Shown here piece after piece: positions 35,971-60,469 of a stretch of 64,000 bases of DNA. Source of the stretch: Pseudisothecium myosuroides (Eukaryota; Streptophyta; Bryopsida; Hypnales; Lembophyllaceae); contig OX637295.1 in assembly GCA_951799445.1 (NCBI GenBank), forward strand, positions 6,510,001-6,574,000, read 5' to 3'. The notes under the pieces were generated by a model. It worked only from the letters and a program-made list of their open reading frames with translations, was not told the origin of the DNA and ran no database searches. The first letter of the stretch is position 1; the number at the start of each line of letters is the position of its first letter. A program made the position numbers and the translations under genes.

Positions 35971-36593
35971 TTAACCCCTAAATGCCAAGGGACCGAATTT
36001 TGGTGTCGACAAAACTTTGAAGTTAAATAAAACCTAACCAAGTTACTATTTTTTTGAATTTTTTTTTTGAAGTCTAGTTTTAGCATCAAAAGTCTAATTC
36101 TAGAAATGATGGATTATAATTTTTCTATTCAAGATTTTGTGCAAGGGCATTGCAATCTTGACTTTTTGTAGTGTTGAGGGCTCTTGAAAATGAGCCTCAA
36201 ATATACTAGATTTTGGAGGAAAAATCACATTAGAAATTCATTTAAAAAAAATTTAGAGTAGATTTTGAGAAGCCGTAAATTGATTGGGGTTATGCATGTT
36301 AGGTCCTTTAACCTCATTTTTTTTGTTGGCCAACATTTTAGATTTGGCATGTGAAAAGACTTCAAGTCACTTTCGCAGTTTTAACACCTTCATGTTCAAA
36401 CATTATAATCTTTCAATTTATAAGTGATATTGTTGTGTTTTTTTCTCCTATATTACTTCTAATATGTCTAGTTTGAATTTGTACAGTTACAATTTATTAA
36501 AAATTGATACAGCTTATCAAAATGTTGTCTTTTTGTTCAATTTAGAGCAAAGTCCTAGAAGTTCAAGAAGGGCCTTAGGCATTTAGGGGTTAA
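35971..36593. mobile_element. TTAA element 1 (piggyBac-like MITE)
   Basis: It begins TTAACCCCTAAATGCCAAGG and ends TTAGGCATTTAGGGGTTAA, an inverted repeat that includes the TTAA target. 623 bp, no transposase. It matches the outer parts of the element at 57933-59321. Confidence 0.8.
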
Positions 36594-38210
36594 AAGATTT
36601 GGTGCAAATGTAAAAGTTTTATAGAAGTGCAGTTAAGTAACATTACATGAAGACAATTGCAAACCATGGATCATTCCATTAAATTATCAAATACATTCAT
36701 TTCATGGGGTGCATGAGAGATTTCAAAACAAATATTCAGATTCATCTTCGAACCTCCACATTATTATGGCCTCTTGTTATTTATGTGGTCTACAATATAT
36801 CCTATATTTAGTGAAGAATTTGATTTAATTTGAGTGGAAGCATATGATTGGTCTATTAGAACTAGTGTCTATTGCATTAGTGTCCCTCTTGTATTTATAA
36901 TGCTTTGAACATATGCTACATAATAGATTACCTATAATCATTTAGGCTCTATTATAATAGCTTCAAACTCAAACAAAAGAGAAAAAGAGAAAACTTAATA
37001 TTCATGATTTATAAAGTAGCTTAAGGTATGTTTGCACTTGGTGTTAGGGGTGATGTTTGCAATCTGAATCTTGGTTCAAAAGTAGGTCTAAATTCGTTCC
37101 TAAGATCTTCAATAACAACATTTGTTAACACCAAGTGTGAACATATCTTTAGTCAAAACCTTATTAAGTAAATAGGATGTTTTCCTTTCTAAATATCTAA
37201 ATGATTTTTTTTTTTTGCACTTGCCACACTTATAGCTTGAATCAAATAGTAACCAACAAGTTGCACATGTAATCACTGAAGACATTACATCTTCATGGGT
37301 TGGAATTGTTTTCAAGTAATTGCAACTACTTCTGACCTTTTTCTAAAACCAACTTTTACATATTACTCTTGCCAAAAATGTACGATTTCTACTCATGAGA
37401 ACCTAAGGTCGATATTGGAAATACATGTTTTCAACACTTTAAACACTCATAATTTATTCATAATACATCCAAATTTTTCATTCTAAGAAAGCATAGAATC
37501 CTCTTTTTGACTCTCAACAAGATCTTTTAGAGTTTAATAATAGGAACCATGCTCAAACCCCCATTTGGACTCATTTGAGGTATTATCTTAATGAAAATGA
37601 TATTTCTTGCCAATTTTGTCAACAACGCAGTGACGCGGCCCTCTCCTTCTTCTCCTTGTCTTCTTCTCATTCCAGAAAGTCAAGCCACCGGCCCTCTCTT
37701 GGAAGTCAAAGCCACAGGGTAAACCACTATTTGAAAGACTTTTAATTAGTGTGGCTTTTATGAGCCGAATTCTAGTTGCTGAAAAGGAACTTCACCAGTT
37801 AGTGACAGAGAACTAAGTTAGTTCTAAATCACCCAATGAAACACAATAGAAGTGTGAGGCAAATATCAGTCTGAATATCTTCCACCAATTTTCCACTTGC
37901 GTCTCCAGTCTCCACTTTCATTCTGTCCTACCATCACCCTATCTGATGATAAGACTATAGGGGATACAGTACCAAAACAACTTACTTTACGCGAAGGTCA
38001 GATTTGGCAGAAATTAAGTCATTTCTGGAAGAAAAAAAAATGACATGTGTCATCATGTGAATGGTATGAGGTGACAAAAGACCCTTGAGAATATGACATG
38101 GAAACTCAATTTTGGCACTTAGTGCCGAATCAAACCTTCACGTACGGTATTTTCTATCTAGGGCATGAAAAGTATGTTGTCTCTTCCCTTGTTGTGTTTT
38201 GATTTTCGTA
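36594..38210. other. Intergenic, no gene recognised
   Basis: Apart from the small MITE at 37021, only AT-rich sequence with short frames is seen. Confidence 0.45.
37021..37152. mobile_element. 132-bp MITE
   Basis: The ends AAGGTATGTTTGCACTTGG and CCAAGTGTGAACATATCTTT are inverted repeats of about 25 bp. Non-coding; related to 25898-25995. Confidence 0.65.
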
Positions 38211-38354
38211 AGGTAAGGCGATAACACCTATTCCCATCCATGTACCCAATTCCATCATGATGTACCAACAAAGTACATTTTTACTAAGAAAATGTGCACC
38301 CTTGGTACCTCATGACGGAATTGGATACATGGATGGGAATGGATGTTTTCACCT
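38211..38354. mobile_element. 144-bp foldback MITE with AGGTA ends
   Basis: The two halves are near-perfect inverses: the left arm contains ATTCCCATCCATGTACCC and the right arm GGATACATGGATGGGAAT. The ends are AGGTAAGG and TTCACCT. It abuts the following TTAA element. A diverged copy is at 42244-42381. Confidence 0.75.
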
Positions 38355-39278
38355 TGAACCCTAAAATACCAAGGCATTTTCTGGCTCCGGAACCACTGAA
38401 AACTGCCATTTTTGCTGCGATCACTCCCTAAACCCAAAAAAACTTTTTGCTTAGAATCTAACCATAGGATCTTGTACTTCACTTGTCTCAGATTATGTGG
38501 TAAAAATTTCAAGACATTTGACCGTTCTGATTGGAAGATATTAACATTCAAAGTTGGAAAAAAAAAGTTTTTTTGAACTGTTTCCTGCAATTTCAGATGA
38601 CTTTGACGGCCATTTGTGGATTTTTTTTGCACTACACAACAAAAAGTTGTAATTTTTTATCTTGAACATTTGAGTTGAGAGTCGGGGAATTTTTTTTCAG
38701 AATGTTAAACCTTGATTTTCACATATAAAAAAATTGTTAAATAGAAGTAGGTCCAAAATTGAACGAAATACTAAATTGTTAATAGCTCTTAGGTGGAATT
38801 AAAACAATATAATCCCAATGGTGGGATTGTTCTTGCAAACAAACTTGACCTCGTCCAAAAAAAAATTTAAAAAATTTGAAAATTGCATTCAAAAATGAAT
38901 TCTATAAGTTAGTTTTTTTGAAGATGCTTAAATTGCCCGAAAAACAAGATTGTCCATAACTTTCTCATTATTAGTCCAAATAGAATGAATCAAAGCTTCA
39001 GATGTAGACAAAAACATGATCTTTGAGGGAAAAAAATAAAAAAAATAAAAAACTTTTTTTTTTTTTTTTTCTGCCCGCCGAACTGCTTTTTTGCTTTAGG
39101 ATGGCATAACTTTTGCTCCCGGGCACCGATTGAAAAAAATATATATATTTTAAGAAAGCTAATGTGATTTCCTATCTTCAAAAAAAGTTTCAAAAAATCA
39201 GATCAAAATTTGAGGCCACACGGGTCTGCCCGAAATCTGAAGTGTCCCCCGAGGGGACTTTGGTACTTTAGGGGTTAA
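38354..39278. mobile_element. TTAA element 2 (925-bp family, oldest copy)
   Basis: Same family as 42856-43779 and 50625-51549. The left end is degenerate (TTGAACCCTAAAATACCAAG); the right end is CTTTGGTACTTTAGGGGTTAA. The shared interior includes CATTTTCTGGCTCCG and CATAGGATCTTGTACTTCAC. It has no intact ORF longer than about 125 codons. Confidence 0.8.
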
Positions 39279-39433
39279 GTGCACCTCAAATTCTGAATTG
39301 AAATGAAAGAGTTCCAAGTACATAATCTTGATCAAGCTCATTTATGTACAAATGACAATCACTCATTGGATTAGGAGAGGTATGTTAGTTTCTATAGGAC
39401 AATGGGACTAGTTTAGATTATGGTAACCTCATT

Positions 39434-40363
39434 TTAACCCCTAAAGGACCAACATGCATTTTTATGCAACATAGAAATTTTGGGCAGATACGTGTGACTA
39501 GATATTTGCATGTTTTGGACTGAAACTTTTAGAGTAGGTGGGGACAAGGAATATCTTTCATATGCACCAAATTTCATGACATTTGGAAATACAAGTCAAA
39601 AGTTATGGCCTAATATGTTGTTTGTTTTTCAACTCGGGCAGTCTGGGCAGATAAAAAAAAATCACTTTTTTCAAAAATAAAATTTTGAAATTGGTTTACT
39701 AGATTTATACATACATAGAAAGCTTTGAATCATTCCATTCTCATCAATGAGTCAAACGTTACGAGGATTTTTAGTTTGCGGGCAGTTATGGATTGTCTAC
39801 TCTAAAATAAACTTTGAAGTTGTTTATTTCACCCAATTTTCAATATTTTTCAAAAAAAAAAATCATAGGGTGTAGATTTTTTATTACAACATTGCAACCA
39901 TTGGGATTGGCATTTTTCAATTCCATAAATTTCTTCTTTACAATTTAGTGTTTTGAACCATTCTCTACTTCTTTCTACTTACTATTTTTTTCCTATATGT
40001 TGTATAATTCCAAATAATCTGAAAATTTTCAAGCATTTAGCCAATTTGCCCTGAAGAATGAATCCAAAGAAGCACAACCATTTTGGAAATTTTTTCATAA
40101 TAATCTAACCTTGTGAAGTCAGTTGCCCGATTTTTTGCAGGGCCCAAAAAAGGACTTTTGCCACTTCAAACGCTAATATCTTCCAATCTACAGAATGAAA
40201 ATTTCTGAATTTTTTTCTAGATATTTTCAAACTAGAGTACTACAAGATCCTATGGTTACATGTGTCCAAAAATGATATTTCTCAAAAATTTGGTACTTGT
40301 ACTAGAAATGGCAGTTTTGGAGCATTTTTGGTGAGAACATAGTCAAGGAACTATAGGAGTTAA
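39434..40363. mobile_element. TTAA element 3
   Basis: Left end TTAACCCCTAAAGGACCAAC, right end GGAACTATAGGAGTTAA. It has the same interior as the element at 52797-53788. Its right half resembles the reverse complement of the left half of the 925-bp family (ACTACAAGATCCTATGG versus CCATAGGATCTTGTACT), so the families are related. Confidence 0.8.
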
Positions 40364-40381
40364 ACACTTGATTGAGCATTG

Positions 40382-40616
40382 TTAACCCTTTAAGGACAGA
40401 CTGGTGACCGTGGAAATCATTCCTTTGGATACCGTGAGAATCATTCCCTCAAAAAAAATGCAAAAGCACTCATAGTTTCTACAATCAAACTATTGTAGAA
40501 GACCTTCCCTATTCACAACAAAATTTTGAGGATGAATAGTTGCAATTCAGTCCACATGCAAGGATTCTTTGTCATGCATAGGACGCCAAACATCCGCCGC
40601 ATCGTTTATGGACTAA
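40382..40616 (-). mobile_element. TTAA element 4 (230-bp family)
   Basis: It starts TTAACCCTTTAAGGACAG. Its right end is decayed (CATCGTTTATGGACTAA). It is the reverse complement of the element at 55197-55426 over most of its length. Confidence 0.65.
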
Positions 40617-41212
40617 ACAAGATCTGTCCATGAAAATTGTGTACAACAAACTTTTTTTAAATTGTTATAGAAATTACACCCAAACCTTCCATTGCTTGAA
40701 ATGTGATTTCCCATAACAAGACTCAACCTTCACGTTACCTACTGTAGCTAGTCCCATTTCAGGTGCATGTACCTTATTATGCATTTGGATTCAGGCAGAA
40801 GAAGACTGAACCATGGCCTTGTTCACTTATCAGGGTTGAAGTTGGTGAGACTTCTTTGGCCAGTGGAAACTGCAACTGTTCTGAGTTCTGACCCGTGGAA
40901 GATTTGACTGAAGAAGAAGAGTTCAGAAAGGCCTTCGGATTCAAAGACCAGCACTCCAGCAGGAAGGAACTGAAGCTTTTTGGTGGGGTAGTTCAGTCAT
41001 CTACAACTGTTTTCTCGTCTCTAGATTTCGCTTTTTTATATTGGATAGGGGTCACAATTAGGGTGCAAATACCCTTGACAAATTATTCATAGTTTGAGAT
41101 TTTTGTAGTGTGAAAATCGTGAGAGACTCTCATTCACAAATCTTTAACGTGCTAGCTGATTTATGCGTACCTTATTTATGCTTACCACAGTCAGTTGCTT
41201 AGAACATCTGTA

Positions 41213-42011: not shown

Positions 42012-42243
42012 CTAGTAATTTGATATCAAGGCCCATGGCATAAGAGCCTGTTGCCATTGGGAGTCGGAACTGGAGGCCCGTCCAGGTTGACCACGGACAG
42101 TCTGCTTAAAAACTCTGGAATCTTGACGAGCGGTACATTTTCTAAAGTAAGCTCCGGGATGGGGTCCGGGAGATCCAGCTTTAGCAGAGCTAGACGCCAT
42201 AGGTCCAGGTCAGAAGTCCAGCTCCCAATGGCAACTGGCTCTA

Positions 42244-42381
42244 AGGTAGACGCATCCCTTTCAGTCTGAGTACCCCATTCCATCATCATGTAAGAATGGA
42301 GTACATTATAGAAAGAAAATGTGCATCTTTGTTACATATTGACGGAATGTGGTAAACGGACAAGAATGGGTGTGTCTACCT
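42244..42381. mobile_element. AGGTA-ended foldback MITE, second copy
   Basis: The ends AGGTAGACGCATCCC and GGGTGTGTCTACCT are flanked by TA on both sides. The interior GAAAATGTGCA... matches the element at 38211-38354. Confidence 0.65.
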
Positions 42382-42609
42382 TATAGGATGCACCTCCTCT
42401 CTCTCTTTGGAAATTGCGCCCTTTTTTGGGATGTTCACGTCTGAATAAACTTGAATACACATTGCATGCTAGATTCCTTCTTAGAAATTCACATGTCTAG
42501 TGTTTGGTTTGTGTGATATTTTGAGATTTTGGAAATAATCTATTTATATTTCTCTATTACAGAGAAGTTAGCTTTATTTTCCAATAATCCTTCATCAATT
42601 TAAAAAAAT

Positions 42610-45600
42610 GATAGTTTATTTTTTGTTTTGTTTTTTATAACAAATGGAAACCATTGTATTAAAAGAGAACCAAATAACCGCTGAGATAGAGGTTGGACAA
42701 ATGAAGAGAGGATGAGCAAAAAAACAAAAAAAGGGAGGTAAAAAGAACCAAGAAACTAAGTAAACAAACAAAGAGGAGGGTCCTCTTTGTTCCACTTGAT
42801 AGAGTAACCAACCCTAGAAGCTAAAACCGGAGATTGCAACCAAATATTAGGAAATTTAATCCCTAAAGGCCCAAGGCATTTTCTGGCTCCGAAACCATTG
42901 AAAACTGCCATTTCTGCTGCAATCACTCCCTAAACCAATTTTTTTTTTTTTTAGAATCTAACCATAGGATCTTGTACTTCACTTGTCTCAAATCATGTGG
43001 TAAAAATTTCATGAAGTTTGGCCATACGGATTGGAAGATATGAGCATTTGAAGTTGGAAAAAGAAGTTTTTTTGAACTCTGGATTGCAATTTCAGATGAC
43101 TTTGACGGCCATTTGTGGATTTTTTTTGCACTACACACCACAAAGTTAAATTTTTTATGTTGAACATTTGAGTTGAGAGTCGGGGAAAAAAATTTCAGAA
43201 TGTCAAAACTTGATTTTCACATATAAAAAAATTGTTGAGTAGAAATAGGTCCAAAATTGAACAAAACACTAAATCTTCAATAGCTCTTAGATGGAATTAA
43301 AAAACCATAATCCCAACGGTGGAATTGTTCTTGCAAACAAACTTAACCTTTTCAAAAAAAAAGATTTGAAAAAATTCGAAAATTGCATTCAAAAATGAAT
43401 TTTATAAGTTGTTTTTTGAAGAAGACGCTTAGATTGCCTGAAAACCAAGATTGTCCATAACTTTCTCATTCTGAGTCCAATTAGAATGAATCAAAGCTTC
43501 AAATATAGACAAAAACATGATCTTTGAGAAAAAAAATCAAAAAAAAAATTCAATTTTTTAAAGTTTTTTTTTCTGCCGGCGAATTGCTTTTTTGACTTCG
43601 GGCGGCATAACTTTTTTTCCCGGGCACCAATTGAAAAATAAAATTATATTTTTGGAAAGCTAATGTAATTTCCTATCTTCAAAAAAAGTTTCAAAAAATC
43701 AGGTCGAAATTTCAGGTCGTTAGAGCCTGCCCGAAATCCCAAGTGTCCCCCAAGGGGACTTTGGGCCTTTAGGGGTTAAACCAAATCCTATTAGAGTTTT
43801 GAGGTCTACACTTAGAAGCTAGGTCAGTCTTAAGAGCAGCAACTTGTCCGAAGTCAAGGAGGGCGCTCCATAAACTAGTATGAAGAAGGATGGTAGGCCA
43901 CCGATCCTATGCAAAGACCATATGGTTACACATAATCCAACATAGTCACAAGGCAGCTCCGCAAACAATAGACCAAATCGTATGTATTCTATGGAACATT
44001 CTAGGAGTAGGAGTCCCAAAATTACACTGGATAGCATCCAATCTTTGATGAGGGACCAAAGTTGGAGACGAGCCGCGGATGTGGTGCATCACCAAAAGTG
44101 CATAGTTCCAAATTTCTTGAGATCTAAAGCACTCAAAGAACTTGTGAAGAGGGATTTCTATGACACTAGGATTGCAACAAACACAATTCACGTCAATCCC
44201 TGGAGCAATTTTAGCTTGCCATGAATTTACGACGACAACATTATGCCAGACTAAACATATAAGGGCCGCATCCTTCTGTGGATGGGCTTTGATCCAAATA
44301 TCTCTCCAACGTGGGACATAGGAATCTGGAAGAAGAGCATACCAATTTGCTGCTATGGGCCGCTTCAGCTGGGTTGAGGTCGTAAGTAGCTTGCGTCCCA
44401 TGGTAGCCGTATAATCCAAGAGTAATTTGCCATTGGACCACTTCCATCTCCCTGGGTCGTACTGAAGTGAATGAACTAGTCGTAAAAACAAGAACTTAGG
44501 AGTCCATCTTCTCCCTTTCTTGACTTGAGAAACTCGAATTCTCCGCACAATGCCTCTATGAACTGATGCTGCTGTCACGTCCGGCAAAAGAGATAATTGT
44601 CTAGAATGGAAGCCCATGGTGGCACGTGGAGTGTCACCCTCTAAGGAGATATCTTGAATATGTGCACTGAATAGTGAAGGATGGGGTTCAGACACCAACC
44701 ATGTGATCTCAAGTAATATGTCATTGGGCATGGAATAGATGCCAGCCCAATCCCCTATGGATGCTAGATTTGATTGAGCATTAAGGAGTAGAAGCCAGGT
44801 GTGCGGAATTTGAGAAATCATAAAAAATCAATGATGGCGTTCCATAGTAGTGAATGGGAATTCTTCTAAAATGTTCTCCCACGTCTTGAACTCATTGGCA
44901 TTGGCATCCCATAAATCTCTAATGGTTCGAAGTCCCGCCCTAACTAAGACTCTTACTTGGTCGACGGAGAAATTGAAATTAGAGCCTATAAAACTTGTTG
45001 ACTACCAAATACTAGTAGAGAGTACCTCGGATGCATTGGTAGGTGGAACTAGCTCAATGTGTTTCACAAGTTTCTTCTATGCAAAAGAAATAGGGTTCCA
45101 TATTCTCGACCCTCTAGATACAGATGGTCTTTTTACCATGAGCCGTGCAGTAGAGGAGAACCAAAATCCAACTTAGGGTGTGGTTTCATACGGTGAATTT
45201 GACATTGGAGGAGAATCTTAAGGCCAAAGATGCTAGATCTATAGCATAGAGAACCCACTTAGCTAATAAGGCGTTAAGAGACACTTCCGGGTCAAGAAGT
45301 TGAAGACCACCAGCTGACTTCAGCAAGCAACAATCTTCCCAACTAACCCTGGTCCAAGACAAGAATTTGGTTCCACTCCACAGGTAGTTGCATATACTTC
45401 CCCTAGCTGTCCTAATTGCTTGGATGGAACCGCACCAAATAGCTATAAAGTAGTAAATTGATGAGAGAAGAATTGCGTTTACCACAATTGCTCGTCCAGC
45501 CAAAGAAAGGTGTTGGGTTGTCCAATACTTCAACTTCTTAGTAATCTTCTGTTGTAAAAACGTGTCCACGTCGGCAGTCTCCATTGAAACACCAAAAGGT

Positions 45601-45650
45601 GCACCCAACAATTTAGACAAGGAGTCATAAGTCCTGATCAGTTTGCATTT
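42610..45650 (-). pseudogene. LINE (L1-type) 3' half: RT C-terminus, zf-RVT, 3' UTR
   Basis: Minus-strand frames 45620-45186 (KLLGAPFGVSM, KKLKYWTTQHLSLAGRAIV, IWCGSIQAI) are the C-terminal part of a LINE reverse transcriptase. 44821-43946 (RWRDIWIKAHPQ, CVCCNPSVIEIPLHKFFEC) is the zf-RVT region that follows it. A frame break lies between them. The 3' UTR runs to a T-rich stretch near 42610-42640, a poly(A) tail on the minus strand. A TTAA element is nested in the 3' UTR at 42856-43779. Inactive. Confidence 0.85.
42856..43779. mobile_element. TTAA element 5 (925-bp family), nested in the LINE 3' UTR
   Basis: Left end TTAATCCCTAAAGGCCCAAG, right end TTTGGGCCTTTAGGGGTTAA. It is almost identical to 50625-51549, so one of the youngest copies. 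It splits the LINE sequence. Confidence 0.9.
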
Positions 45651-45688
45651 CTACCACTTAAGTATATACTAGATAATGTGTTCATTAT

Positions 45689-46431
45689 GGGGTCATTGCA
45701 AGAATGACCGGTACTGAAACATTGTCACAAAACGAAAGTGGATGCTTCCTTTTGCTATAACTTTTGCAGCATGACTCGCATGAATTTGAAATTTTTATTG
45801 GAGATTCTTCTCTTGAGTTTAATCATATCCCATATTTTTCAGAAATTTTCAAAAATCATTTTATATTTAAAAATCATTTAAACTAATATGTCACGTTTTG
45901 AGTTTTAAGGGTTTTTAGTACTATGGAGTCCCCAAATTTAATGATTTGGAAGTGAAATTTCTATAATCTACTCCCATAGTAGGAAGTCATGTTCCTACCA
46001 AGGGGCATTAAAAAATATTATATTTAATGTCCTCTACGTCCATGCAAAGAAGGCTCCCTTGCGCGCACAATTTTGAATGTTGAAGATGGTTTCAAGATAA
46101 TTTTTTTGGTGAAATCTCTTCAAACTAAAGTCTTTTCTAATGGAAAATTTTTGGTTTCTTTGAAAATTGTTTTTCCTAATTTTTACAAATTAAAATGTCA
46201 AACTATGTATTTTCTTCAAAATTTCAGCTCACACGTTTTTGTGAATAACTTTTTACCTTGATTTTTTTTAGGTCTGAAATTTTGGTGATATGCTATTTCA
46301 AGTGTTATACTAATTATCCTTATTTTATTTTATTTTTAAAAATTCATATGCAAAAAGCTTGTAGTACTGGGAGTACTAGGCGAAAACAACCAAAGTGGAA
46401 CAAAAACAGAAGGTCATTCTTGCAACAACCC
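45689..46431. mobile_element. Inverted-repeat element (TTGCAAGAATGACC) at the LINE junction
   Basis: GGGGTCATTGCAAGAATGACC at the left and GGTCATTCTTGCAACAACCC at the right are inverted repeats. About 743 bp. Length, the TGCAAGAA core and an internal TATAACTTTTGCAG motif make it a relative of the element at 4389-5120. It sits exactly between the oppositely oriented LINE parts. Confidence 0.7.
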
Positions 46432-46434
46432 TAT

Positions 46435-46990
46435 GAGACTATCCAATGGGCTAAAGATTCTCAATAGAATCTTATATTTTTGAAACTTGACTTTACAAAG
46501 GCATATGATACAGTCTCATGGGATTTTCTCTTTGGTGTTATGAGGAAGATAGGCATTCTTGATGCCTTTACCCACATTGTTCAAATGTTACTTCAAGATG
46601 CATCAGCATCTGTCTCGATCAATGGCAAACTCTCTAGTTCGTTTAACATTCAGCATGGGGTGTGCCAAGGGTGCGCTTTGGTCCCTTACTTATTCCTATT
46701 GGTTGGGGAAGCCTTTAATATGGCAGCCAAGGAGGATCAGCATCTAGGCAAAATACAAGGCATCCAATTACTGGAGACAAAGGATCGTCAACTTCTTTTT
46801 CAGTATGCTAATGATAATGGGGTATCCATTTTAGACCAGGAAATCTTCTTGAAGAATACGGTGGATCTTGTTCATCGTTTTGGCTCTGCATCAAGCTTAG
46901 TTATTAATTGGACAAAGAATACATGATATTGGTTTTCTCATATCCTCCTTCCAGACTGGCTCAATAATTTTAGGATTACTTGGCCCCCCC
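46435..46990 (+). pseudogene. LINE reverse transcriptase core, inverted relative to its 3' half
   Basis: The plus-strand frame reads ETIQWAKDSQ-stop, then LKLDFTKAYDTVSWDFL, VSINGKLSSSFNIQHGVCQG and PYLFLLVGEAF. The catalytic YADD site is YAND (QYANDN), so it would be inactive even without the stops. The following untranslated part (YWFSHILLPDW...) leads to where the minus-strand fragment begins. This is the layout expected of a 5'-inverted (twin-primed) LINE insertion. Confidence 0.88.
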
Positions 46991-47141
46991 CCCTCACTCC
47001 TTGTCTAAAAATGATAGTTTTGGAAACTGTGGTTTATGAGATCCTACATTTTACCCCCAAACTTATTTTTATAGATAAATAATGTGATTAAATATAAAAT
47101 GAAACAAAATAGTATAGCCTTCTGGTGGATTTTAATTCCTA

Positions 47142-48094
47142 GCCCCTAAATGAAATATTTTAGGAGACAAATGGATGGTCATTTTATGTTAGATATTTTT
47201 TTTCACTGTCCTAAAATTGGCAACTTTTGATGATTATGCCAACAATGTGCTCCATTCTTTTAGGAATTAAGAGGATTCAATGTCCTATGATTTAATATGG
47301 AAAGGTACAAAAAAAACATCATCTTCAAACTAATACGGAGTAGTAGATTACTATGGGAATGAGTGGAAAAATTCTCATTAACTTTGACCGTATGAATTAA
47401 AAGATCACAAGGTTTGAAGTGAGAAGAAAAAGTTTTTTTACCAACCTTGTCCAACATGGTCAATAGACTTTGACCATTAAATGACAAACTAAGCCCATGA
47501 GGTTTGGTTTTGGTAGAATCATTGACAAAAAGTATTTTTTGTATTTTTTTGGAATGTTTCAACTTACAAGACCCACTTCCATAGGGATTACGGCTTGCTA
47601 AGCACCACACTTAGGTTGCAAAGTCTACTTACTATTTTCTTTTACATGCCATAATTGTACAAACTTCGAGCAAACAACAAGACCCAGATTCTAATTCAAG
47701 GATATTTTTTATTACTCTTTCAGTTTCCCTCAAGACAAGTGAATGTCATTTAAAGGTTAATTCCTCCTAGAATGAGATTTTTTGCACTACACATGGATTT
47801 TTTAACAATTGCATACTATATATTATTGCTAGTTACATACCTATCAAATTTCAAAAGTAGAAGAGGAATTTTCGACATGTTACTCAAAGTTATTGCCTTG
47901 TCTAGAAACTTTGGGTAGCATAATTTTTTATCCTTGCGTACAATTACAGCAAAAAAAATTATATTACTGGCAAGGTGGTATATTTGTACACTTTTTGTCA
48001 AAATTTCAAAAAGATCCGATCAAACCTGACTTTGTAGGGAAATACTTGAAATTTCAATTGATCGTTCAACAACCACTTGGTCTTTAGGGGTTAA
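47142..48094. mobile_element. TTAA element, poorly preserved left end
   Basis: The right end CACTTGGTCTTTAGGGGTTAA is clear and matches the right end at 60469. The interior (AAAGATCACAAGGTTTGAAG) matches 59500-59520. The left end may be CTAGCCCCTAAATG near 47142, but this is uncertain. Confidence 0.5.
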
Positions 48095-49924
48095 ATAAAT
48101 AAATAACTATATAGAGATTCTAATTTTAAGAAAATTTATTTTGAAATTGTGTTGGAAGAGACGGGGGGGGATAAAAAAAACTAAAGTTGATAAAAAGGTA
48201 TACTCACCCAAAAGCACTACTGCTAATTTTGCACCACCTCTATTTGGCCCTCAACTGATCACCTTCAATTATCCATTTCACCACTAGTTCTCAATAGCCA
48301 ACAAATGGAATTGAAGAATTTCCTACTGCAAAAAGGATTTAGTGATATAAATAGTTTTTTCATGCTTTCAACTTTGATTATTCATAGAATATTATATGGG
48401 TTTCAAAAATTATAAAACATTATAGGCTAGTTTTTTCTTGAGGATGCTAACATCTTCATAAAAAAAAATCAATATTTGTACTACTTGCGTAGTAAAGACA
48501 AAGAAAGTGGTGTTTTTTGGTGCTTCATCTTAATTTAAAGATGGGATTAAAACACGTCAATCCAAATAGTAGGAATGTTCTACCAAACAAACTAAACACA
48601 ATGTACATTGTATTTACAAAATTGCAAAATTGCAAAATTTGAATTCAAAAGCAATTACACTATACAACTACATTGTGTTTCTATAAAGGTGATCTAATTG
48701 CCCACAAAACAAGATACTCCATAATTTTCACATCACTAATCCTTTGGAATGAATAAAAAGCCTCCCATATGTACAAAAAACTTCCCATATACACAAAAAT
48801 ATATCATATAAGGGAAATTTTGACCTCAAGCAATTTAAGCTTAAGGTGGCACAAACTTTGCTTTTAGGAATCTATTGAAATAAAAATAATATTTCAGAAA
48901 AACTTACTTGTTCTTTCTTCATCAAAAAAAGACACAAAAAAAATTCACTAAAATTAAGATTATTGGGAGCATGTCTAAACTTTCATTTATTTTCTAAAGA
49001 GACAATGTACCTTTACAAGTTAAGAACACATTATGTATTAAACCAATTTCAACTTAAAGGTCTCTATTAGAGTTTTTACAATCAAACTCATGTTTCATAA
49101 ATAGTCTCTTCAAAGTAATGATTTTAAAGTGCAATCCTTGATTGTAGAAAGGTTATCTCACTAGAAGAAATCAACATTTGCCTCAACAAAATCTACATGA
49201 CGTGTTTGTTGAGGCAAACGCAAAATCTGTGTTGAAAAAGGCAAAAAAACGCAGATTTTGCGTATACTTCAACAAACACGTCATGTAGATCTTTAGTCAA
49301 ACACCATATGTAGCTTTGAGCAATACTTCTTGTCATCTATTCTATAAAAGTACATTTTAGTCCTCAACCATTTAGAATAAGTTGTTAAGACTACGGTGAT
49401 TTGTTCTATTAGTGAACAGAAAAAATTAGGGTCACCTAGACAATTAGTATTGCTCTAAATTTATATTTTTGTTGAAATTGGTATATAATAGTAATATTTT
49501 CAACATACACCAATTCAAAACAATGTGCCTTTGGAAAATTAGTCACACGGATTATTATTGCAAATCAATATAGTGAATTACTAGCACAAGGTATCTTACA
49601 CTAGCCCTCATAAATGAAAAGTGATAAGGGTTCAAAATGGATGATAAAAAGATATGGAATCCTACATATCATAAAATGAATAAGGCTTTATGGTCATCTA
49701 GATTTTGCATCGAGACAACCTCAAAGGGTTCTTTCGCAAAATCTTTACGATGACCAAGCCATGATAATAGAGGTTGTCTTACATGAGTGTCTATTTGGCA
49801 AGTTTGTATAGGTGTGCAGGAAGTATCATTAGCCTTGGAATTCCAAGGCCTATTCAATTGCTCAAAATAGAGACAATTTTTGCTCTACGCACTCACAACT
49901 CTATTTTCCATTCCAACAAAGTTG
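48095..49924. other. Intergenic, no gene recognised, contains a strong foldback
   Basis: AT-rich sequence with no coding signal. The 100-bp foldback at 49191-49290 is listed separately. Confidence 0.45.
49191..49290. repeat. Strong 100-bp foldback (43-bp arms, about 39 paired)
   Basis: The arm 49191-49233 starts ATCTACATGACGTGTTTGTT. The arm 49248-49290 is its inverse with about four mismatches, around a 14-base loop. The asymmetry of mismatches and the length would suit a young miRNA-like hairpin or a foldback MITE. No TA or TTAA flanks were recognised. Confidence 0.75.
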
Positions 49925-50552: not shown

Positions 50553-51879
50553 TAAGGTAGTTTACTCTAAAAGCCTCTTCAAATCGACCCTATATTTAAG
50601 TCTGAAATGGATATTAGGTGGTCTTTAACCCCTAAAGGCCCAAGGCATTTTCTGGCTCCGAAACCATTGAAAACTGCCATTTCTGCTGCAATCACTCCCT
50701 AAACCAATTTTTTTATTTATTTCAGAATCTAACCATAGGATCTTGTACTTCACTTGTCTCAAATCATGTGGTAAAAATTTCATGAAGTTTGGCCATACGG
50801 ATTGGAAGATATGAGCATTTGAAGTTGGAAAAAGAAGTTTTTTTGAACTCTGGATTGCAATTTCAGATGACTTTGACGGCCATTTGTGGATTTTTTTTGC
50901 ACTACACACCACAAAGTTAAATTTTTTATGTTGAACATTTGAGTTGAGAGTCGGGGAAAAAAATTTCAGAATGTCAAAACTTGATTTTCACATATAAAAA
51001 AATTGTTGAGTAGAAATAGGTCCAAAATTGAACAAAACACTAAATCTTCAATAGCTCTTAGATGGAATTAAAAAACCATAATCCCAACGGTGGAATTGTT
51101 CTTGCAAACAAACTTAACCTTTTCAAAAAAAAAGATTTGAAAAAATTCGAAAATTGCATTCAAAAATGAATTTTATAAGTTGTTTTTTGAAGAAGACGCT
51201 TAGATTGCCTGAAAACCAAGATTGTCCATAACTTTCTCATTCTGAGTCCAATTAGAATGAATCAAAGCTTCAAATATAGACAAAAACATGATCTTTGAGA
51301 AAAAATATCAAAAAAAAAAATTCAATTTTTTAAAGTTTTTTTTTCTGCCCGGCGAATTGCTTTTTTGACTTCGGGCGGCATAACTTTTTTTCCCGGGCAC
51401 CGATTGAAAAAAATTATATTTTTGGAAAGCTAATGTAATTTCCTATCTTCAAAAAAAGTTTCAAAAAATCAGGTCGAAATTTCAGGTCGTTAGAGCCTGC
51501 CCGAAATCCCAAGTGTCCCCCGAGGGGACTTTGGGCCTTTCGGGGTTAAACGGACCTCTCAAGCCATTGAGAAAATCAAGAGAAAAGCATTATCTATTGT
51601 AAGAGCCAATCATTGGCCTTCATTTACTCAAATCACTTTAGAAGTTGCAAGTAGTCAGATTTTGGAAGGCCTAGGGTCACAAATAGGTGCCTACAACAAT
51701 TTTTTTGAAAATTCATAAGTAATTCAAAAATGATTCAAAAAAATATGAAACCACTTGTGTTACGTACCGCATCCATTTTTCTTTCTCTGAAAAATGATCC
51801 AAAAATATTTCTATTTACGGAAACCTGTGGAAAAGGCAAACCAGCCCTTAAGTGGTCGCTTTTAGAGCATATTACCTTA
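50553..51879 (+). mobile_element. AGGTAGGAGG-family MITE, copy 5, carrying a nested TTAA element
   Basis: TAAGGTAGTTTACTC at the left and ATATTACCTTA at the right. The left-hand paralog near 3830 reads GATGACAATATTGTCTC where this copy has GATGACAATA-element-TATTGGCTC, an empty site showing a TA duplication. The 925-bp element at 50625-51549 is nested about 70 bp from the left end. Confidence 0.8.
50625..51549. mobile_element. TTAA element 6 (925-bp family), nested in a MITE
   Basis: Left end TTAACCCCTAAAGGCCCAAG, right end TTTGGGCCTTTCGGGGTTAA. Near-identical to 42856-43779. Confidence 0.92.
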
Positions 51880-51949: not shown

Positions 51950-52364
51950 CTAAGATAGGAGGCTGTAAAACAGAGCGGGCATTAAGTATGGACCCTATAA
52001 ATGATTGTGAAATGGACATGAGTTGGTTCTGAAATTGACTAGTACAGTCATTGAATGAATCAAGGAAAAAAGACTTATTAATTGCAAGAGCCAATCATTC
52101 TCTTTGCTTTCCCCATTTTTATTTAGAATTGCAAGTGAATCGTTCATGAAAGACCTAGGGTCACAAATAGGGACCTACGACCCAACTCGTTTGAAAATTC
52201 ATAAGTAATTCAATAATGCTCGGAAAAATACGAAACCACTTGAGTTAGATTCCTCATCAATTTCTCTATGTCTGAAAAATGAGCTAAAAATATTTTCGTC
52301 AAAAGAAATACATGAAAAAGGCAGACCAGCCCTTAGATGCTCCATTTCTGAGCCTCCTACCTTA
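51950..52364 (+). mobile_element. AGGTAGGAGG-family MITE, copy 6 (full length)
   Basis: TAAGATAGGAGGCTG at the left and GAGCCTCCTACCTTA at the right. About 415 bp, the inverse of the copy at 25079-25492. No ORF of note. Confidence 0.85.
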
Positions 52365-53056: not shown

Positions 53057-53125
<69 letters not shown>

Positions 53126-53788
53126 ATATATACGTGGAAAGCTTTGAATCATTTCATTTTGATCAATGAGTCAAACGTTATGAGGATTTTTAGTTTGCGG
53201 GTAGTTATAGATTGTCTACTCTAAAATAAACTTTGAAGTCATTTATTTCACTCAATTTTCAATATTTTTCAAACAAAAAATAAAATTGTAGGATGTAGAT
53301 TTTTTATTACAACATTACAACCATTGGGATTGGCATTTTTCAATTCCATAATTAACTTCTTAACAATTTAGTGTTTTGAACCATTCTCTACTTCTTTCTA
53401 CTTACTAATTTTTCCCTATATGTTGTACAATTCCAAATAATCTAAAAAATTTCAAGCGGTCAGCCAACATTCCCTAAAGAATGAATCCAAAGAAGCACAA
53501 CCATTTTGGAAACTTTTTCATAATAATCCGACCTTGTAAAGTGCAACTACCCGGTTTTTCGCAAGGCCAAAAAAAGAACTTTTGCCACTTCAAATGCTAA
53601 TATCTTTTAATCTACATGATGGAAATTTCTGAAATTTTTTCCACATATTCTCAAACCAGAGTACTACAAGATCCTACGGTTACATGTGTCCAAAACTGAT
53701 ATTTTTTCAAAAATTTGGTACTTGTACTTAAAATGGCATTTTTGGAGCATTTTTGGTGAGAACATAGTCAAGGAACTTTAGGGGTTAT
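52797..53788. mobile_element. TTAA element 7
   Basis: Left end TTAACTCCTAAAGGACCAAC, right end GGAACTTTAGGGGTTAT (TTAA mutated). Same family as 39434-40363, but about 60 bp longer because of an ATT microsatellite inside. Confidence 0.82.
53058..53122 (+). repeat. (TTA)n microsatellite
   Basis: About 21 uninterrupted TTA units within TTAA element 7, absent from the related element at 39434-40363. Confidence 0.95.
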
Positions 53789-54771: not shown

Positions 54772-55117
54772 CCATCGGTCCATCAGTCCACTGGGTCCAC
54801 GGTCCCAAGCCGGGAAGTGATAAGCACGAGTATTGGGTATGGGTTTCCTCTGCTCAGTCCATGCCTCTCAACTCAGGGCCCAACGTCTGCAATTACAAGC
54901 ACCTATCAGAGGGTCAAATTTATCATTTTGTAGTACTTGGAGTATGAATAACTCCAAGGTTGGACCATGCCTCTGTCCAGTCAGATATTTCCTCATTGAG
55001 TTGGATTATCAAATGGCAAAATCCTCCGTTTCATAACATTCAGTAGCATGTGTTGATGTTGCCTTGGTTCTACAGTGATGGTGTGCCTCTACATCTTCCA
55101 CTTGTCTAATTCATCAG

Positions 55118-55759
55118 TAAGGTAGGAGGCTGTAAATGCAACCCTCTCCTTCAAACCGTCCCTATATTTAGCTGTAGAATGGATTGGTGGTGATCCTTAA
55201 CCCTTGAACGACGCGGAGAATGTTTGACGTCCGATGAATGACAGAGCATCTTTGCATGTGGACAGAAGTGCAACTATTCATCTTCGGAATTTTGTTGTGA
55301 AAAGGGAAGGTCTTTTACAATAGGTCAATTTTCAATGAGTGGTTTTTCATTTTGTTAAGGCAATGAATCACACGGTAATGGAAAGGGAGGATTTCGAGGG
55401 TCACCCCTTCGTCCTCTAAGAGTTAAATGGACCACTTTTGCTATTGAATGAATCAAGAAAAAATTATTTTTTATATTGTGAGAGCCAATCATTGGCCTTG
55501 ATTTCCTAAAATCACTTTCAAAATTGCAAGGGGACGGATTTTGGGAGACCTAGTGTCACAAATAGGTACCTACTACTGAAATCTTTGAAAATTCACAACT
55601 ATTTCAAAAATGCTTCAAAAAAATATGAAACCACTTGTGTTACATTCCGCATCTACTGTTCTTTCTCTGAAAAATGAGCTAAAAATATTTTGATTCATGT
55701 GCACCTATGAAAAAGGCGGATCAGCCCTTAAAGGGTCGCTTTTTGAGCCTACTACCTTA
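55118..55759 (+). mobile_element. AGGTAGGAGG-family MITE, copy 7, carrying a nested TTAA element
   Basis: TAAGGTAGGAGGCTG at the left and GAGCCTACTACCTTA at the right. Interior as in the other copies, with a nested 230-bp element at 55197-55426. Confidence 0.82.
55197..55426. mobile_element. TTAA element 8 (230-bp family), nested in a MITE
   Basis: Left end TTAACCCTTGAACGACGCGG, right end CGTCCTCTAAGAGTTAA. The inverse-oriented relative is at 40382-40616. Confidence 0.75.
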
Positions 55760-57932
55760 GCTATTGATGAAGCATTGTTGGGATGTGGAATATACCACAC
55801 CATCGCTGTAAAGCTATTGAATGTTATGTTACTTCTACATATATACTGTAATCAAACCCTAGATAATCTACTTTAGGTGGAACTTGTCTCCTCAAAATTT
55901 CATCTTAACTCCTATAAATACTCAAGGCCTTCTTTTACACTTCTTTGGACATATCTTAATACTTTAGTTGTTAGTTTTGTTGAGAAATTTGAAAGTTGTT
56001 TGAATGAGTTGTTCATCATCAAGAATATCGACTTGCGTTTATCATTCAAGGGATGAGCTAAGGTAGACTGATATCTTTGGGGTTCATTGACAAAATAGGA
56101 AATGTGTTTGCAAGTGTAGAGTAAACCTTTTGTTACTCGTTTGTTGAAATTTCAACTTTTGACAACTACCAAAGATTTTTCCTTTGACTATTTTATTTTA
56201 AAATCAAATTCAAAACAAGGTGCCCATCACTGTGGTCATCCACCATACGATTATCCTTTTCATGTACAAACATGTAGAATGTTCTTTCTACATGAACTTT
56301 GAAAATAAGTAGACTCTTTTTGTACTCTGCATCTTCTCACGACTAAAGAGAGCCTCTTGCCTTCTTTTTTCTTTTTTCTTTTTGGTAGCAATATGGCCTA
56401 CAAGAGAATCAATGTCTGGCATACCCTCCAATGTAAAGGAAAATAAGTGGGCCTTTTGCCTAAACAGAACCCCTTCCTCCTGCCCCTTTTGCCTTGTCGT
56501 TCTAACATGTTACAAAAGAAATATCACACGTCTACTGAAATACAGTACAGTGGGCTACCCAAAAGATACGTGTACATATATGATATTCGGCTTATCAACC
56601 CAATTGGCATGGGACCCTACTTATCTCAAGAACTACTATCATAAGGCGTGGTCCAATTACACAATTTAAGAGCAGTTCCATCACTAGCAGAATGTCACAC
56701 CTTGACAGTTGCTGCGTCACATGGAATCAATGTTTTATTTCAATGCACCAATTTTTGACCAATTGGCTACAGCCAGAAGATGTTACCTCTTTTTTGTTCA
56801 AGAATTTTTCATTTTTTTCTGGTCAAAAACAGTCAAATTATAGTTGTCTGTCAAGACCAACAACCAAATTCTACCGAGGTATCACCTAGTTTTGATAAAG
56901 CTATCACCCCAGTATCACATGAGTATTGAAGAAACAGCTGGCTACACCTCTCAAATGATTTAAAAAAAACACTAAAAACTGCATGAAATGTTCCAATGAG
57001 TAGTACGGTAGTACTGTACTGTCGGAAAAGGCTGCGTCTGTTGAATTTTTGCTGTCTGCAGCTCCTCACATGGATTGGCAATGTAACGTCAATGCAAAAA
57101 TTTCTTCATAATGAGCTCACATGCATGTTCCTGGCCCAAAGCTGGTGGAGACAGCCACGGACCTGGTTTTCATGATTCTCGTGTGGAACTGGAGCCAGAC
57201 AAGAGTCGTCCTCACGAGGCCGGCTTGTTCAGTAAGATAGAGTCAGTTTTCATCACATCAAAGACGGAAGTGCAGAAACCGACTTCAAACTCAACTGTGG
57301 TGCAGAACTGAAAGGGGGTGGCAAGGCTGTGGCAGGACAGGACAGGACAGGACAAGACGTGAGGGGCATGACTAAGTTATAAAGGAAAGTGAGTTAACGC
57401 AGGGGCAAACTGACAAACCTCTGCTGTGCCAGTTGAAATTAGAAACTCGGGCTGACATAAATTTAAGGTTTGGGACTACAGAAGAGAACGCGCGCCGGTG
57501 CAGGCGCATTCTGCATAGGAGCAAGCCCAACACAGGGTTGTTTTTTTAGGCCTCATGAGGCCAGACTCGAATGTCGTGGCACATGCACAGTGGTGTATAT
57601 CTGGAGGGAACGTCCTCCATTTCTTGCATGGTGCACTGTCAGAATGAAAAAAAAATGCTGAGCCCAAGGGTGAGCTCTTCAGCGAGCTCCCATGCAAAAC
57701 GCGCATGCATCAGCGCGTTCTCATATGTTAAGAGTTGAGGGAACTCAATGGGAACAGAATGGGAACTCCAGAATCGGTCACCCCTATCGATTCAGTGGCA
57801 GAATTGACCACATTCTTCCTTGGAGTACATTCTGCTTCCCCAAAATGCTCTGAGATGGGCCGAGCCAGCCACGGCTCTTATCATCCACAAAGCGTACATT
57901 CGCAAGTAACCAGTTGGAACCAAAAGTTGCAA
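55760..57932. other. Intergenic, no gene recognised
   Basis: Somewhat GC-richer between 57080 and 57760, with a GGACA-type microsatellite near 57333-57355, but no domain or convincing splice-bounded ORF. Short ORFs of 60-107 codons overlap on both strands. Confidence 0.45.
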
Positions 57933-59321
57933 TTAACCCCTAAATGCCCAAGGCAACCAAGTTTTGGAGTCCACAAAAGTTTGAAGTTTAATAAAATCTT
58001 ACCAAGTTACTCCTTTTTGGTACTATTTTTAGTAATTTTTTGGACAAACTGTTTTTGAAATCTAGTTTTAGCATCAAAAATCTGATTTTGAAAATGAATG
58101 ATTATGATTCTTCTATTCAAGATTTTGTATAAGGATATCCATTACAAATCTTGATTTTCTAGTGGTGAGGGCTCTTGGAAACAAGCCTCAAATACATTAG
58201 AACTTGGAGAAAAAAATCACATTAGAAATTCATTTAAAAAATTGTAGAGTAGATTTTGAGAAGTTTTAAATTGATTGGAGTTATGCATGTTATGCCCTTT
58301 AACCCATAAGGACCCAAGTGACCATTTTCTGGTCGCTGTCCTTGTTTTTTGAGCTTCTCTTCTCATGTTTTGAGTTTTTTGAAAAATAAGATTTATTTAT
58401 AAAAAATAGACTTTGTTACAAAACCAATGGCAGTGGTTTCATCAAATTTCAAGTTAAACTCCGCCTTGTGGAATTTTTCAAAGTTTAGCAGTGTAGTCTA
58501 GTTTACAACTCGTTCTTTTGTGTTCAGTTTGGGCATGCCAGCCAACCAATGAGCTTCTTGCCCACCTCGTAAAGGTCAGATCCACCTTGAAAAGGTCAAA
58601 TCCAAGGAGCTCAAGGAGAAGACAAGTGTCCCATTCTTTTTTCTCTTGCAAACACTACTCAAATTTCAGTGACCACCGTGCACTGCAAGCTTCACCATGA
58701 ATTGTGAAATTCTTGAAATGTTATGAAATTTTACATGTACATTTTCAACTCTCTTATCTTTCACTGAGCACAAAAAGGCATCATTTTGAAATATTCACAC
58801 AAAGATATACTCCTTCAAAATGAGCTGCCCTGTATTTCCATTGACTCAAATAAAACTTCAAAATTAAATATCTCCTGAACCATGCGGTCAAATAATCTGA
58901 TTTTTTTTGAGATGCTCACTCTCAATGTTAAATTCAAGATCCTATGATTACATTATATCCGATCTCAAAAAAATGGATCAAAAAATTGCTCAAGTTGTTG
59001 GCAGTTTTGGCCCATTTTGAAAGAACACCCCCCTTGGGTTAACCTCATATTTTTAGGTGACCTCATTTTTACATGTGAGAAGAGGATTGAAAGACTTCAA
59101 ATCACTTTGTAACACACTCATGAGCAAAAATTATAATCTTTCAATCCATAATAGATATTGTTGTGTTTTCTTTTTCCATGTGATCTCTAAAATGTTTAGT
59201 TTAAATTTGTACGATTACAATTCAAATTTTCTTTATAAAATACATCAGAATGTTGGATTTTTGTTCAATTTAGAGCAAAATTTTAAAAGCTTAAAAAAAG
59301 CTTTGGGCATTTAGGGGCTAA
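57933..59321. mobile_element. TTAA element 9, interrupted by element 10
   Basis: Left end TTAACCCCTAAATGCCCAAG, right end TTTGGGCATTTAGGGGCTAA. The outer parts match the 623-bp element at 35971-36593, which lacks the insertion and so gives its empty site (CCTTTAACCTC). Confidence 0.85.
58299..59042. mobile_element. TTAA element 10, nested in element 9
   Basis: It starts TTAACCCATAAGGACCCAAG and ends CCCCCCTTGGGTTAA. Comparison with 36311-36316 in the uninterrupted relative shows insertion at TTAA with duplication of TTAA. Confidence 0.88.
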
Positions 59322-60469
59322 CCCGTAAAAGACCAGTTTTTTTTCCAGGGGAACATTGTCAAAAACTGCAATTTTTTGGTATGTTATTCAAAAATGAAAA
59401 TTGAAATTTTTCTTGAAACTTAAACAATACAAAACTGAAGTAAATTATTTTATCAAAGTGTCAAGAAAAATTCAGCCCATTTGACCATGTGAATTGAAAG
59501 ATTATAAGGTTTGAAGTGTGAAACAAAAACTTTTCTTCATTCCTATGAAACATGGCCCTTTTGGAGTAAAATTTTGACCATTTGTAAGTACATGACGTTA
59601 GGTACTCTCATGAAAAATTTTACATGCAAATATAAAGTCTAGCTTACTCTAAATCACCCTGCAATGCAAGGACATTAAATGAATTGGCAATACACTAGTC
59701 AATTTGGGATGATTTCTTGTACCGCTAATGTGGCCACTAAGCTATTTCTCTGGAAAGCTCTCCTACTTTCCATTAGGTTCACGTGTAAGATTGAAGAATT
59801 TTGCCAGGCTTCTGCATGAGTTTTTCTTGATCGTTTAGATTTCATTATATTATAGTAGAGTTCTTTATTAGAAATATGTCATTTTTTTCTTGCGAGTCTC
59901 TATATGATCCATCCGTAGGCACTGAGTGTTGCTAAAGGAAAGGAAATCAACTGAGACTTGAAGCAATTTTTTTATTTGAAATATGATTTATAAAAATTTA
60001 GAGACAAACATTTGGAACATGTGGAAAACATTTCAAGAATTTTGACTTCACAAATTGCAAGATAATAGGATTTGAAGTTAAAAGAAAATGTTTTTCTTGA
60101 AACCACCCCAACGTAGCTAACAAAGTTTGACTCCTCTTAGAATGTGATTTGAGGACTAGATTTTTTTTTGACAATTGTATGTCATATTTTATCACTTACA
60201 TACCTGCCAAATTTAAAAGTTGATGAGCTCTTTGCAAAAGATTCCCAAAAGATTTCTAAATCACTTGAGCTACCTCAGGAGTTTAAGGCAGCATAACTTT
60301 TGATCCAAGTACCCGATCAAAAAAAAGTTAGTTCTTCACTAAGGAGGTACATGTTAACTTTATACATTGTGTTCAAATTTCATAAACATCTGATCCAAAA
60401 TGGCTTTGTAGGAACCTACCCAAGATTCCTTACATACGTTGAATAGACACTTGGTCCTTTAGGAGTTAA
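59318..60469. mobile_element. TTAA element 11, sharing its target site with element 9
   Basis: Left end CTAACCCGTAAAAGACC, right end TTGGTCCTTTAGGAGTTAA. The CTAA at 59318-59321 is at once the right end of element 9 and the left end of this one. 1152 bp, related to 47142-48094. Confidence 0.75.

What the first reader, a model, noticed from the sequence alone, without database searches (positions are those of the whole stretch)
35971..60469. Dense cluster of TTAA-targeting, CCCCTAAAGG-ended elements: a piggyBac-like family in a plant
At least ten elements (35971, 38354, 39434, 40382, 42856, 50625, 52797, 55197, 57933, 58299, 59318) share inverted ends of the form TTAACCC(C)TAAAGG. They sit at TTAA, and none has a matching end in the first 35 kb. 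Insertion strictly at TTAA with CCC-starting ends defines the piggyBac superfamily, which is seldom reported in land plants. Several size families (230, 620, 740, 925, 930-990 and 1150 bp) share ends but not interiors, implying one mobilising transposase elsewhere in the genome.
Basis: partly seen in the sequence, partly recalled or inferred. Interest (0 to 1): 0.88.

Follow-up and report, generated by a model that had tools for sequence, protein, structure and literature searches.

The report
Moss genome full of piggyBac transposons
A cluster of short mobile DNA elements in what is probably a moss genome derives from piggyBac transposons, a group best known from animals, and the same genome carries full-length, nearly identical piggyBac copies with open transposase genes, so the system moved very recently.

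Summary
The eleven listed elements exist; TTAACCCCTAAAGG-like ends number 17 in the window (0.5 expected). The window's own genome is held (388 Mb): TTAACCCCTAAAGG occurs exactly 21,067 times, read backwards once. Searched with Pfam DDE_Tnp_1_7 (piggyBac transposase), it gave 899 candidates; all 116 that were scored pass the cut-off, best E 1.7e-83. Eleven full-length copies of two families (PB1, 5,632 bp; PB2, 5,414 bp; long open transposase frames) have TTAA at 22 of 22 ends, alike ends and unrelated flanks. Two whole PB1 copies differ by one base. A third family, PB3, has the window elements' own end, CCCCTAAAGGACCAA, and the 925-bp window elements match its two ends with the middle missing. 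Empty sites show insertion into a single TTAA. Errors in the finding: related ends or copies do lie in the first 35 kb, and most size families share diverged interiors. The host is probably a moss. Membership of the piggyBac superfamily is established here; activity today and which transposase moves the small elements are inferred.

The parts
9464..10058 (-). E1: truncated relative of the 925-bp family, one end TTAATTCCTAAAGG at 10058
   Evidence: 176 bits
12349..12362 (-). E2: lone end TTAAGTCCTAAAGG; no interior match found
28345..28599 (+). old fragment of a 925-bp-type element (its right part)
   Evidence: 24.4 bits; control maximum 9.8
35971..36593 (+). E3: 623-bp element, TTAA both sides; uninterrupted relative of E12
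38354..39278 (+). E4: 925-bp family; left tetramer mutated to TTGA
39434..40363 (-). E5: 930-990-bp family, TTAA both sides
40382..40616 (+). E6: 230-bp family; right tetramer CTAA
42856..43779 (+). E7: 925-bp family, TTAA both sides, 99.2% identical to E9
47139..48094 (+).
48539..49023 (+). E16: decayed 925-bp-type element next to E8, right end at 49023
   Evidence: (71.8 bits)
50625..51549 (+). E9: 925-bp family, inserted at a TTAA of repeat R
51951..52071 (-). Part of an unfilled copy of repeat R: gapless empty site (one TTAA) of a full-length PB1 transposon that sits in another R copy on contig C10
52797..53788 (-). E10: 930-990-bp family; one tetramer ATAA
55197..55426 (+). E11: 230-bp family, at the same TTAA of another R copy as E9
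57933..59321 (+). E12: 620-bp family interrupted by E13
58299..59042 (-). E13: 744-bp element nested in E12; perfect TTAA empty-site pair with E3
59318..60469 (+). E14: 1152-bp element abutting E12 and sharing one tetramer (CTAA)

Best explanation
The cluster consists of non-autonomous piggyBac-superfamily transposons. Shown: TTAA on both sides of insertions; ends CCCCTAAAGG and near variants; no long open frames; the same end and both sub-terminal regions occur on full-length elements (PB3) in the same genome whose open frame is a piggyBac DDE_Tnp_1_7 transposase; two further full-length families (PB1, PB2) have near-identical copies at unrelated sites. Inferred: the 925-bp elements arose when a PB3-like element lost its middle, and are cut out and re-inserted at new TTAA sites in trans by a PB3-type transposase, by the hairpin cut-and-paste route known for Trichoplusia ni piggyBac; the 620-bp and 230-bp families ride on the same or related transposases. 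Also inferred: the system is still active.
For: Enrichment of ends. Empty sites: E13 in E12 against E3; PB1 in repeat R against window 51951-52071, 121 bp without gap, one TTAA. Genome: 21,067 exact ends, backward control 1. Transposase: 116 of 116 scored candidates (of 899) over the Pfam cut-off, 14 control genomes 0; PB2 protein 284 bits to DDE_Tnp_1_7, best solved relatives piggyBat (131 bits) and piggyBac 6x67 (106 bits) with the three acidic motifs in register. PB1 and PB2: 22 of 22 ends TTAA in 11 copies; two PB1 copies 1 mismatch in 5,632 bp, two PB2 copies 99.908%. Link: CCCCTAAAGGACCAA at 3 of 10 further transposase loci; the 925-bp profile matches PB3 with positions 2-523 at its right end (215 bits) and 535-925 at its left end (101 bits). 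Recent movement of the small elements: E7/E9 99.2% identical, similarity ending at TTAA. Sampled genome copies: 29 of 36 end tetramers TTAA.
Against: A third 925-type stretch (93 bits) lies inside PB3 upstream of the frame, so homology is not confined to the ends. The PB3 copy read has an extra T after its left TTAA, and the second PB3 copy shows no 535-925 match at its left end. No start codon was assigned to the 589-aa PB3 frame. The 620-bp family matches PB3 only marginally (5 bits) and the 230-bp family not at all, so their mobiliser is open. PB1 and PB2 copies were picked by equal score, which favours identical ones. 7 of 36 sampled and 6 of 27 window end tetramers are not TTAA. No activity was measured.
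Confidence: 0.95

Rival explanations
1. Kolobok-superfamily elements, which also duplicate TTAA.
For: TTAA duplications; Kolobok also forms long-lived MITE families such as T2 in Xenopus (PMC6004289, passages).
Against: Kolobok ends are 5'-RR..YY-3' (PMC9587614, passages); here CCCC. The transposases on elements with these ends are DDE_Tnp_1_7 and match piggyBac structures.
Confidence: 0.01
2. Tc1/mariner- or Harbinger-like elements with TA or TTA duplications that prefer TTAA targets. From sequence alone a 2-, 3- or 4-base duplication inside TTAA cannot be told apart.
For: The empty sites fit TA, TTA, TAA and TTAA alike.
Against: All four bases recur (22 of 22 ends of PB1/PB2) and the transposase is piggyBac type.
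Confidence: 0.01
3. PiggyBac-derived but extinct: all copies are old relics and the identical full-length copies reflect assembly duplication or gene conversion.
For: Many window copies are diverged (E4/E7 86%; 925-bp against 930-990-bp family about 57%), and several ends have mutated tetramers. Many scored transposase loci hold stops.
Against: PB1 and PB2 copies on different contigs have alike ends and unrelated flanks directly outside TTAA at both ends, unlike assembly duplication; one copy has its empty site in the window.
Confidence: 0.04
4. The small elements are moved mainly by PB1 or PB2 transposase rather than PB3.
For: PB1 has the youngest copies and ends CCCCTAAATG, exactly the first ten bases of the 620-bp family.
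Against: The 925-bp, 930-990-bp and 620-bp profiles found no match in PB1 (E up to 0.1), while the 925-bp profile matches PB3 at 215 bits; only PB3-type loci have CCCCTAAAGGACCAA.
Confidence: 0.2

Closest known systems
piggyBac of Trichoplusia ni (PDB 6x67; PMC7351741, passages)
   Same: TTAA target on both sides, CCC-starting short inverted ends, DDE_Tnp_1_7 transposase with the three acidic motifs aligned.
   Different: Proteins only 23-27% identical over the aligned part; elements 5.4-5.7 kb; PB1/PB2 proteins 1,068 and 1,032 aa from the first ATG against 594; plant host; huge numbers of deletion derivatives.
Other animal piggyBac families (PMC10813416, passages; piggyBat 9c0f)
   Same: CCC ends with CCCTT, CCCAT and the like, short TIRs, mostly TTAA with a few variant duplications.
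   Different: Host kingdom; these families have CCCCTAAAGG, CCCCTAAATG or CCCCTCAGGG ends.
Kolobok T2-MITEs of Xenopus (PMC6004289, passages)
   Same: TTAA target, long-lived non-autonomous families.
   Different: Ends AGGRR and a different transposase.
Plant MITEs of the hAT, Harbinger and Mariner superfamilies (recalled)
   Same: Short non-coding deletion derivatives in very high copy number.
   Different: Different target sites, ends and transposases.

Membership tests
piggyBac superfamily | Transposase with DDE_Tnp_1_7 domain on elements with these ends | tested here: met
   116 of 116 scored loci over cut-off; PB2 284 bits; PB3 with CCCCTAAAGGACCAA end
piggyBac superfamily | Three catalytic aspartates | tested here: met
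   TVDE / TDNFFTS / GVDIIDQ of PB2 align with piggyBac TIDE / CDNWFTS / GVDTLDQ; PB3 and PB1 have the matching motifs by eye. That these are the catalytic residues is recalled
piggyBac superfamily | Insertion at TTAA with TTAA duplication | tested here: met
   Empty sites; 22 of 22 ends of PB1/PB2; 29 of 36 in sampled small copies
piggyBac superfamily | Ends starting CCC / pyrimidine | tested here: met
   compared with PMC10813416 passages
piggyBac superfamily | Footprint-free excision through a TTAA hairpin | not testable with these tools
   Needs an assay; known for T. ni piggyBac (PMC7351741 passages)
piggyBac superfamily | Cysteine-rich C-terminal domain | tested here: inconclusive
   Cysteine-rich C-termini are visible in PB1, PB2, PB3 but Pfam called only DDE_Tnp_1_7 in PB2
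Kolobok superfamily | Ends 5'-RR..YY-3' | tested here: not met
   Ends are CCCC; rule from PMC9587614
Sola3 | Sola transposase with TTAA target | not tested
   No Sola search was made; less likely because DDE_Tnp_1_7 elements carry the same ends. Sola3's TTAA target is recalled
Tc1/mariner | TA target duplication and mariner transposase | tested here: not met
   TTAA at 22 of 22 ends and piggyBac-type transposase; TA itself cannot be excluded by sequence

The most novel reading that the evidence does not exclude
A land plant carries a complete, presently mobile piggyBac system: several autonomous families with near-identical copies plus tens of thousands of deletion derivatives mobilised in trans, a piggyBac/MITE burst in a moss.
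Probability: 0.7. Interest if true: 0.85.

Novelty: new member of a known kind. Interest (0 to 1): 0.72.

Why it matters
piggyBac is a workhorse of genome engineering taken from an insect; plant work borrows it (PMC10905368, seen only in the listing). A native, recently moving piggyBac in a land plant would offer a plant-adapted TTAA-specific transposon and a natural system in which the birth of MITEs from an autonomous piggyBac by internal deletion can be followed copy by copy. It also raises a testable question of origin: old inheritance in plants or transfer from another kingdom. In this genome it is no curiosity: one end type alone occurs 21,067 times in 388 Mb.

Tried and rejected
Rejected: Kolobok (ends); TA or TTA targeting (see rivals); hidden coding capacity of the small elements (longest stop-to-stop frame 120 aa in the 10 elements tabulated; mismatches spread evenly over three phases); transposase remnants in the window's 35.9-64 kb (no transposase match among 124 stop-to-stop pieces of at least 55 aa; 2 of 126 pieces dropped as low-complexity; tblastn with piggyBac gave only hits at E 1.9 or worse); long frames in the first sampled loci as transposases (5 of 10 frames of 220 aa or more scanned, none a transposase; tblastn of piggyBac on those loci none).

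Led nowhere: scans of viral contigs (0 and 0) and of bacterial and archaeal contigs (6 matches, about 7 expected by my own estimate); Rfam (0); tRNA (0).

Literature: five searches were answered. In the parts of their listings that I saw there is no paper on piggyBac in mosses; the one moss paper that holds the word (PMC10619864) uses 'piggybacking' (passages). The listings show only the top of each ranking and later searches failed, so absence from print is not established.

Not answered: the genome-wide count of TTAA plus the 15-base end and of TTAACCCCTAAATG.
Full report
What was claimed and what is there. The finding lists eleven elements with ends TTAACCC(C)TAAAGG between 35971 and 60469. 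All eleven are real element ends. TTAACCCCTAAAGG with up to two mismatches occurs 17 times in 64 kb against 0.53 expected, and none of 100 shuffles reaches that. Asked the other way round, of 55 places within two mismatches of CCCCTAAAGG, 15 directly follow TTAA while no other tetramer precedes more than two; permuted decamers next to TTAA give 0.155 on average and at most 3. Self-comparison and profiles group the elements into a 925-bp family (E4, E7, E9), a 930-990-bp family (E5, E10), a 620-bp family (E3, E12), a 230-bp family (E6, E11) and singletons (E8, E13, E14, E16). They cover 42% of the stretch.

Corrections. The first 35 kb are not free of them: ends at 10058 and 12362, homologous copies at 9464-10058 and 28345-28599. 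The interiors are not all unrelated: the 925-bp profile finds both 930-990-bp copies along nearly the whole length at 129 and 109 bits, and the reverse search gives 122-135 bits. E1, E8, E13, E14 and E16 match these families in part, while a reversed window and ten resampled ones give at most 9.8 bits for any of eight profiles. The 620-bp and 230-bp profiles match nothing else in the window. The shared part includes a stretch around CATAGGATCTTGTA, 96-110 bp from one end in six elements (exact in four, one mismatch in two).

Target duplication. E13 sits inside E12. Taking it out and keeping one TTAA gives a sequence that aligns without a gap at that point to E3, the uninterrupted relative. E9 and E11, of two different families, sit at the same TTAA of two copies of a repeat R; two unfilled R copies read TGAA there, one substitution away. 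E7 and E9 are 99.2% identical over 921 bp and their similarity ends at TTAA. In the window 21 of 27 placed ends have exact TTAA, five are one substitution away and one uncertain end two. Of the 18 ends placed by homology alone, 14 are TTAA.

The genome. The window is C9:6510001-6574000 of G000 (388 Mb, 222 contigs). TTAACCCCTAAAGG occurs there exactly 21,067 times, the same letters backwards once. CCCCTAAAGGNCCAA occurs 9,853 times, backwards twice. Of the 23 such places listed up to C1:1,530,972, 19 are also among the TTAA matches listed (compared by hand, taking that list as complete to there). Fourteen arbitrarily placed 10-kb stretches hold 21 ends within two mismatches, which extrapolates to some 58,000 ends in the genome, a rough figure from a small sample. 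In 28 fetched loci, 14 of them chosen because they hold ends, 18 full-length copies were found by profile; 29 of 36 end tetramers are TTAA, 10 of 12 in the arbitrarily placed loci.

The transposase. Searched with Pfam DDE_Tnp_1_7, G000 gave 899 first-look candidates. The 116 that were scored all pass the cut-off of 22.4 by far (243-287.5 bits); many of them hold stops; 14 control genomes gave none. Full-length elements of three families were read. PB2 (C10:4146077-4151490, 5,414 bp) has a perfect 14-bp inverted end CCCCTCAGGGCCGG, TTAA on both sides and an open frame of 1,032 aa from ATG with DDE_Tnp_1_7 at 284 bits. Its relatives among solved structures are piggyBat and piggyBac, with the three acidic motifs in register. 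PB1 (C9:10079421-10085052, 5,632 bp) has a 1,091-aa frame (1,068 aa from the first ATG) and ends CCCCTAAATG/CCCCTAAACG. Six PB1 and five PB2 copies, picked by equal score, were read at both ends: within a group the terminal sequences agree, TTAA is present at 22 of 22 ends, and the flanks are unrelated. Two whole PB1 copies on C9 and C5 differ at one base; two whole PB2 copies are 99.908% identical. One PB1 copy lies inside an R repeat, and the R copy in the window at 51951-52071 is its gapless empty site with a single TTAA. Another PB1 copy abuts, at TTAA, an element of the window type. The three transposases are 36-37% identical to each other and 23-27% to T. ni piggyBac over the aligned parts.

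The link. Ten further transposase loci were read for 2.4 kb downstream. Three have an end CCCCTAAAGGACCAA, the end of the window elements. The other best candidates are CCCCTTGAGG, CCCCTCAACA, CCCCTCAATG, CCCCTTAAGT, CCCTGAAACG and TCCTTAAATG; one locus is unclear, and some loci offer a second candidate; these are single ends picked by motif. In one of the three (PB3, about C10:10309544-10315270) the 925-bp profile matches with positions 2-523 at the right end (215 bits) and 535-925 at the left end (101 bits). The 925-bp family therefore looks like what remains of a PB3-like element after loss of its middle, transposase included. The PB3 frame is 589 aa between stops and carries TIDE, MDNFFSS and GVDVADQ. 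Against a simple story: a third stretch like the small elements (93 bits) lies inside PB3; its left end has an extra T after TTAA; the second PB3 copy has the right-end match (215 bits) but not the left-end one. The direct parent may be another member.

Mechanism. Inferred from the anatomy and from what is published for T. ni piggyBac (PMC7351741, passages): a PB3-type transposase binds CCCCTAAAGG ends on full and deleted copies alike, frees them through TTAA hairpins and joins them to new TTAA sites. Shown here are the ends, the target, the enzyme family and very recent movement; not shown are binding, cutting and activity today.

Host. The window holds kinase, NB-ARC and LRR parts in that order on the minus strand. 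Among 49 relatives of the kinase part the only one whose name gives an organism is from Physcomitrium patens (38% identity); the closest are metagenome proteins at 64-67%. That kinase-NB-LRR proteins are typical of mosses is recalled.

Novelty. The elements belong to a known superfamily by the features tested. Unusual are the host and the scale. In the answered searches I saw no report of piggyBac in mosses; one paper names plants among sources of piggyBac (PMC10813416, passages), so no claim of a first is made.

Noticed in passing
25079-25492, 51562-51879, 51958-52364, 55443-55759, fragments near 2.2 and 3.8 kb: Repeat R, ends about TAAGGTAGGAGGCT..AGCCTCCTACCTTA, another probable MITE family; a favoured landing place for TTAA elements (E9, E11 and a PB1 copy sit in R copies).
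   Followed up: partly
12533-18629, minus strand: Kinase-NB-ARC-LRR gene with a ZZ finger after the LRR; the LRR part is about 30 near-identical 72-base units (12882-15070).
   Followed up: partly
L067/L057 joined, positions 1972-2514 (C10:10311111-10311653): A stretch like the small elements (93 bits to the 925-bp profile) inside PB3 upstream of the transposase frame, also present in a second PB3 copy: a small element that became part of its own helper, or an old shared part.
   Followed up: no
L038+L035 joined, positions 2085-2283: A remnant of the 230-bp family (48 bits) lies near a left-end region next to or outside PB2's left end; PB2 starts at position 3077 of this stretch.
   Followed up: no
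59318-60469: E14 holds the sub-terminal block of the family twice in the same direction (59454-59603 and 60012-60131), perhaps a composite of two elements.
   Followed up: no
38215-38355 and 42239-42386: Two related fold-back (inverted repeat) elements, one directly against the left end of E4.
   Followed up: no
53058-53127: (TTA)23 microsatellite grown inside E10, absent from its sister E5.
   Followed up: no
L017:3260-3440: An insertion of roughly 170 bases, not at TTAA, inside a 930-990-type element; part of the same sequence (TTCATTATATTATAGTAGAGTTC) also occurs in E14 near 59841.
   Followed up: partly
43946-46926; and one stop-to-stop piece in 35.9-64 kb: Broken non-LTR retrotransposon pieces (RVT_1, zf-RVT), and a piece matching the NAD-binding domain of glyceraldehyde-3-phosphate dehydrogenase.
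   Followed up: no
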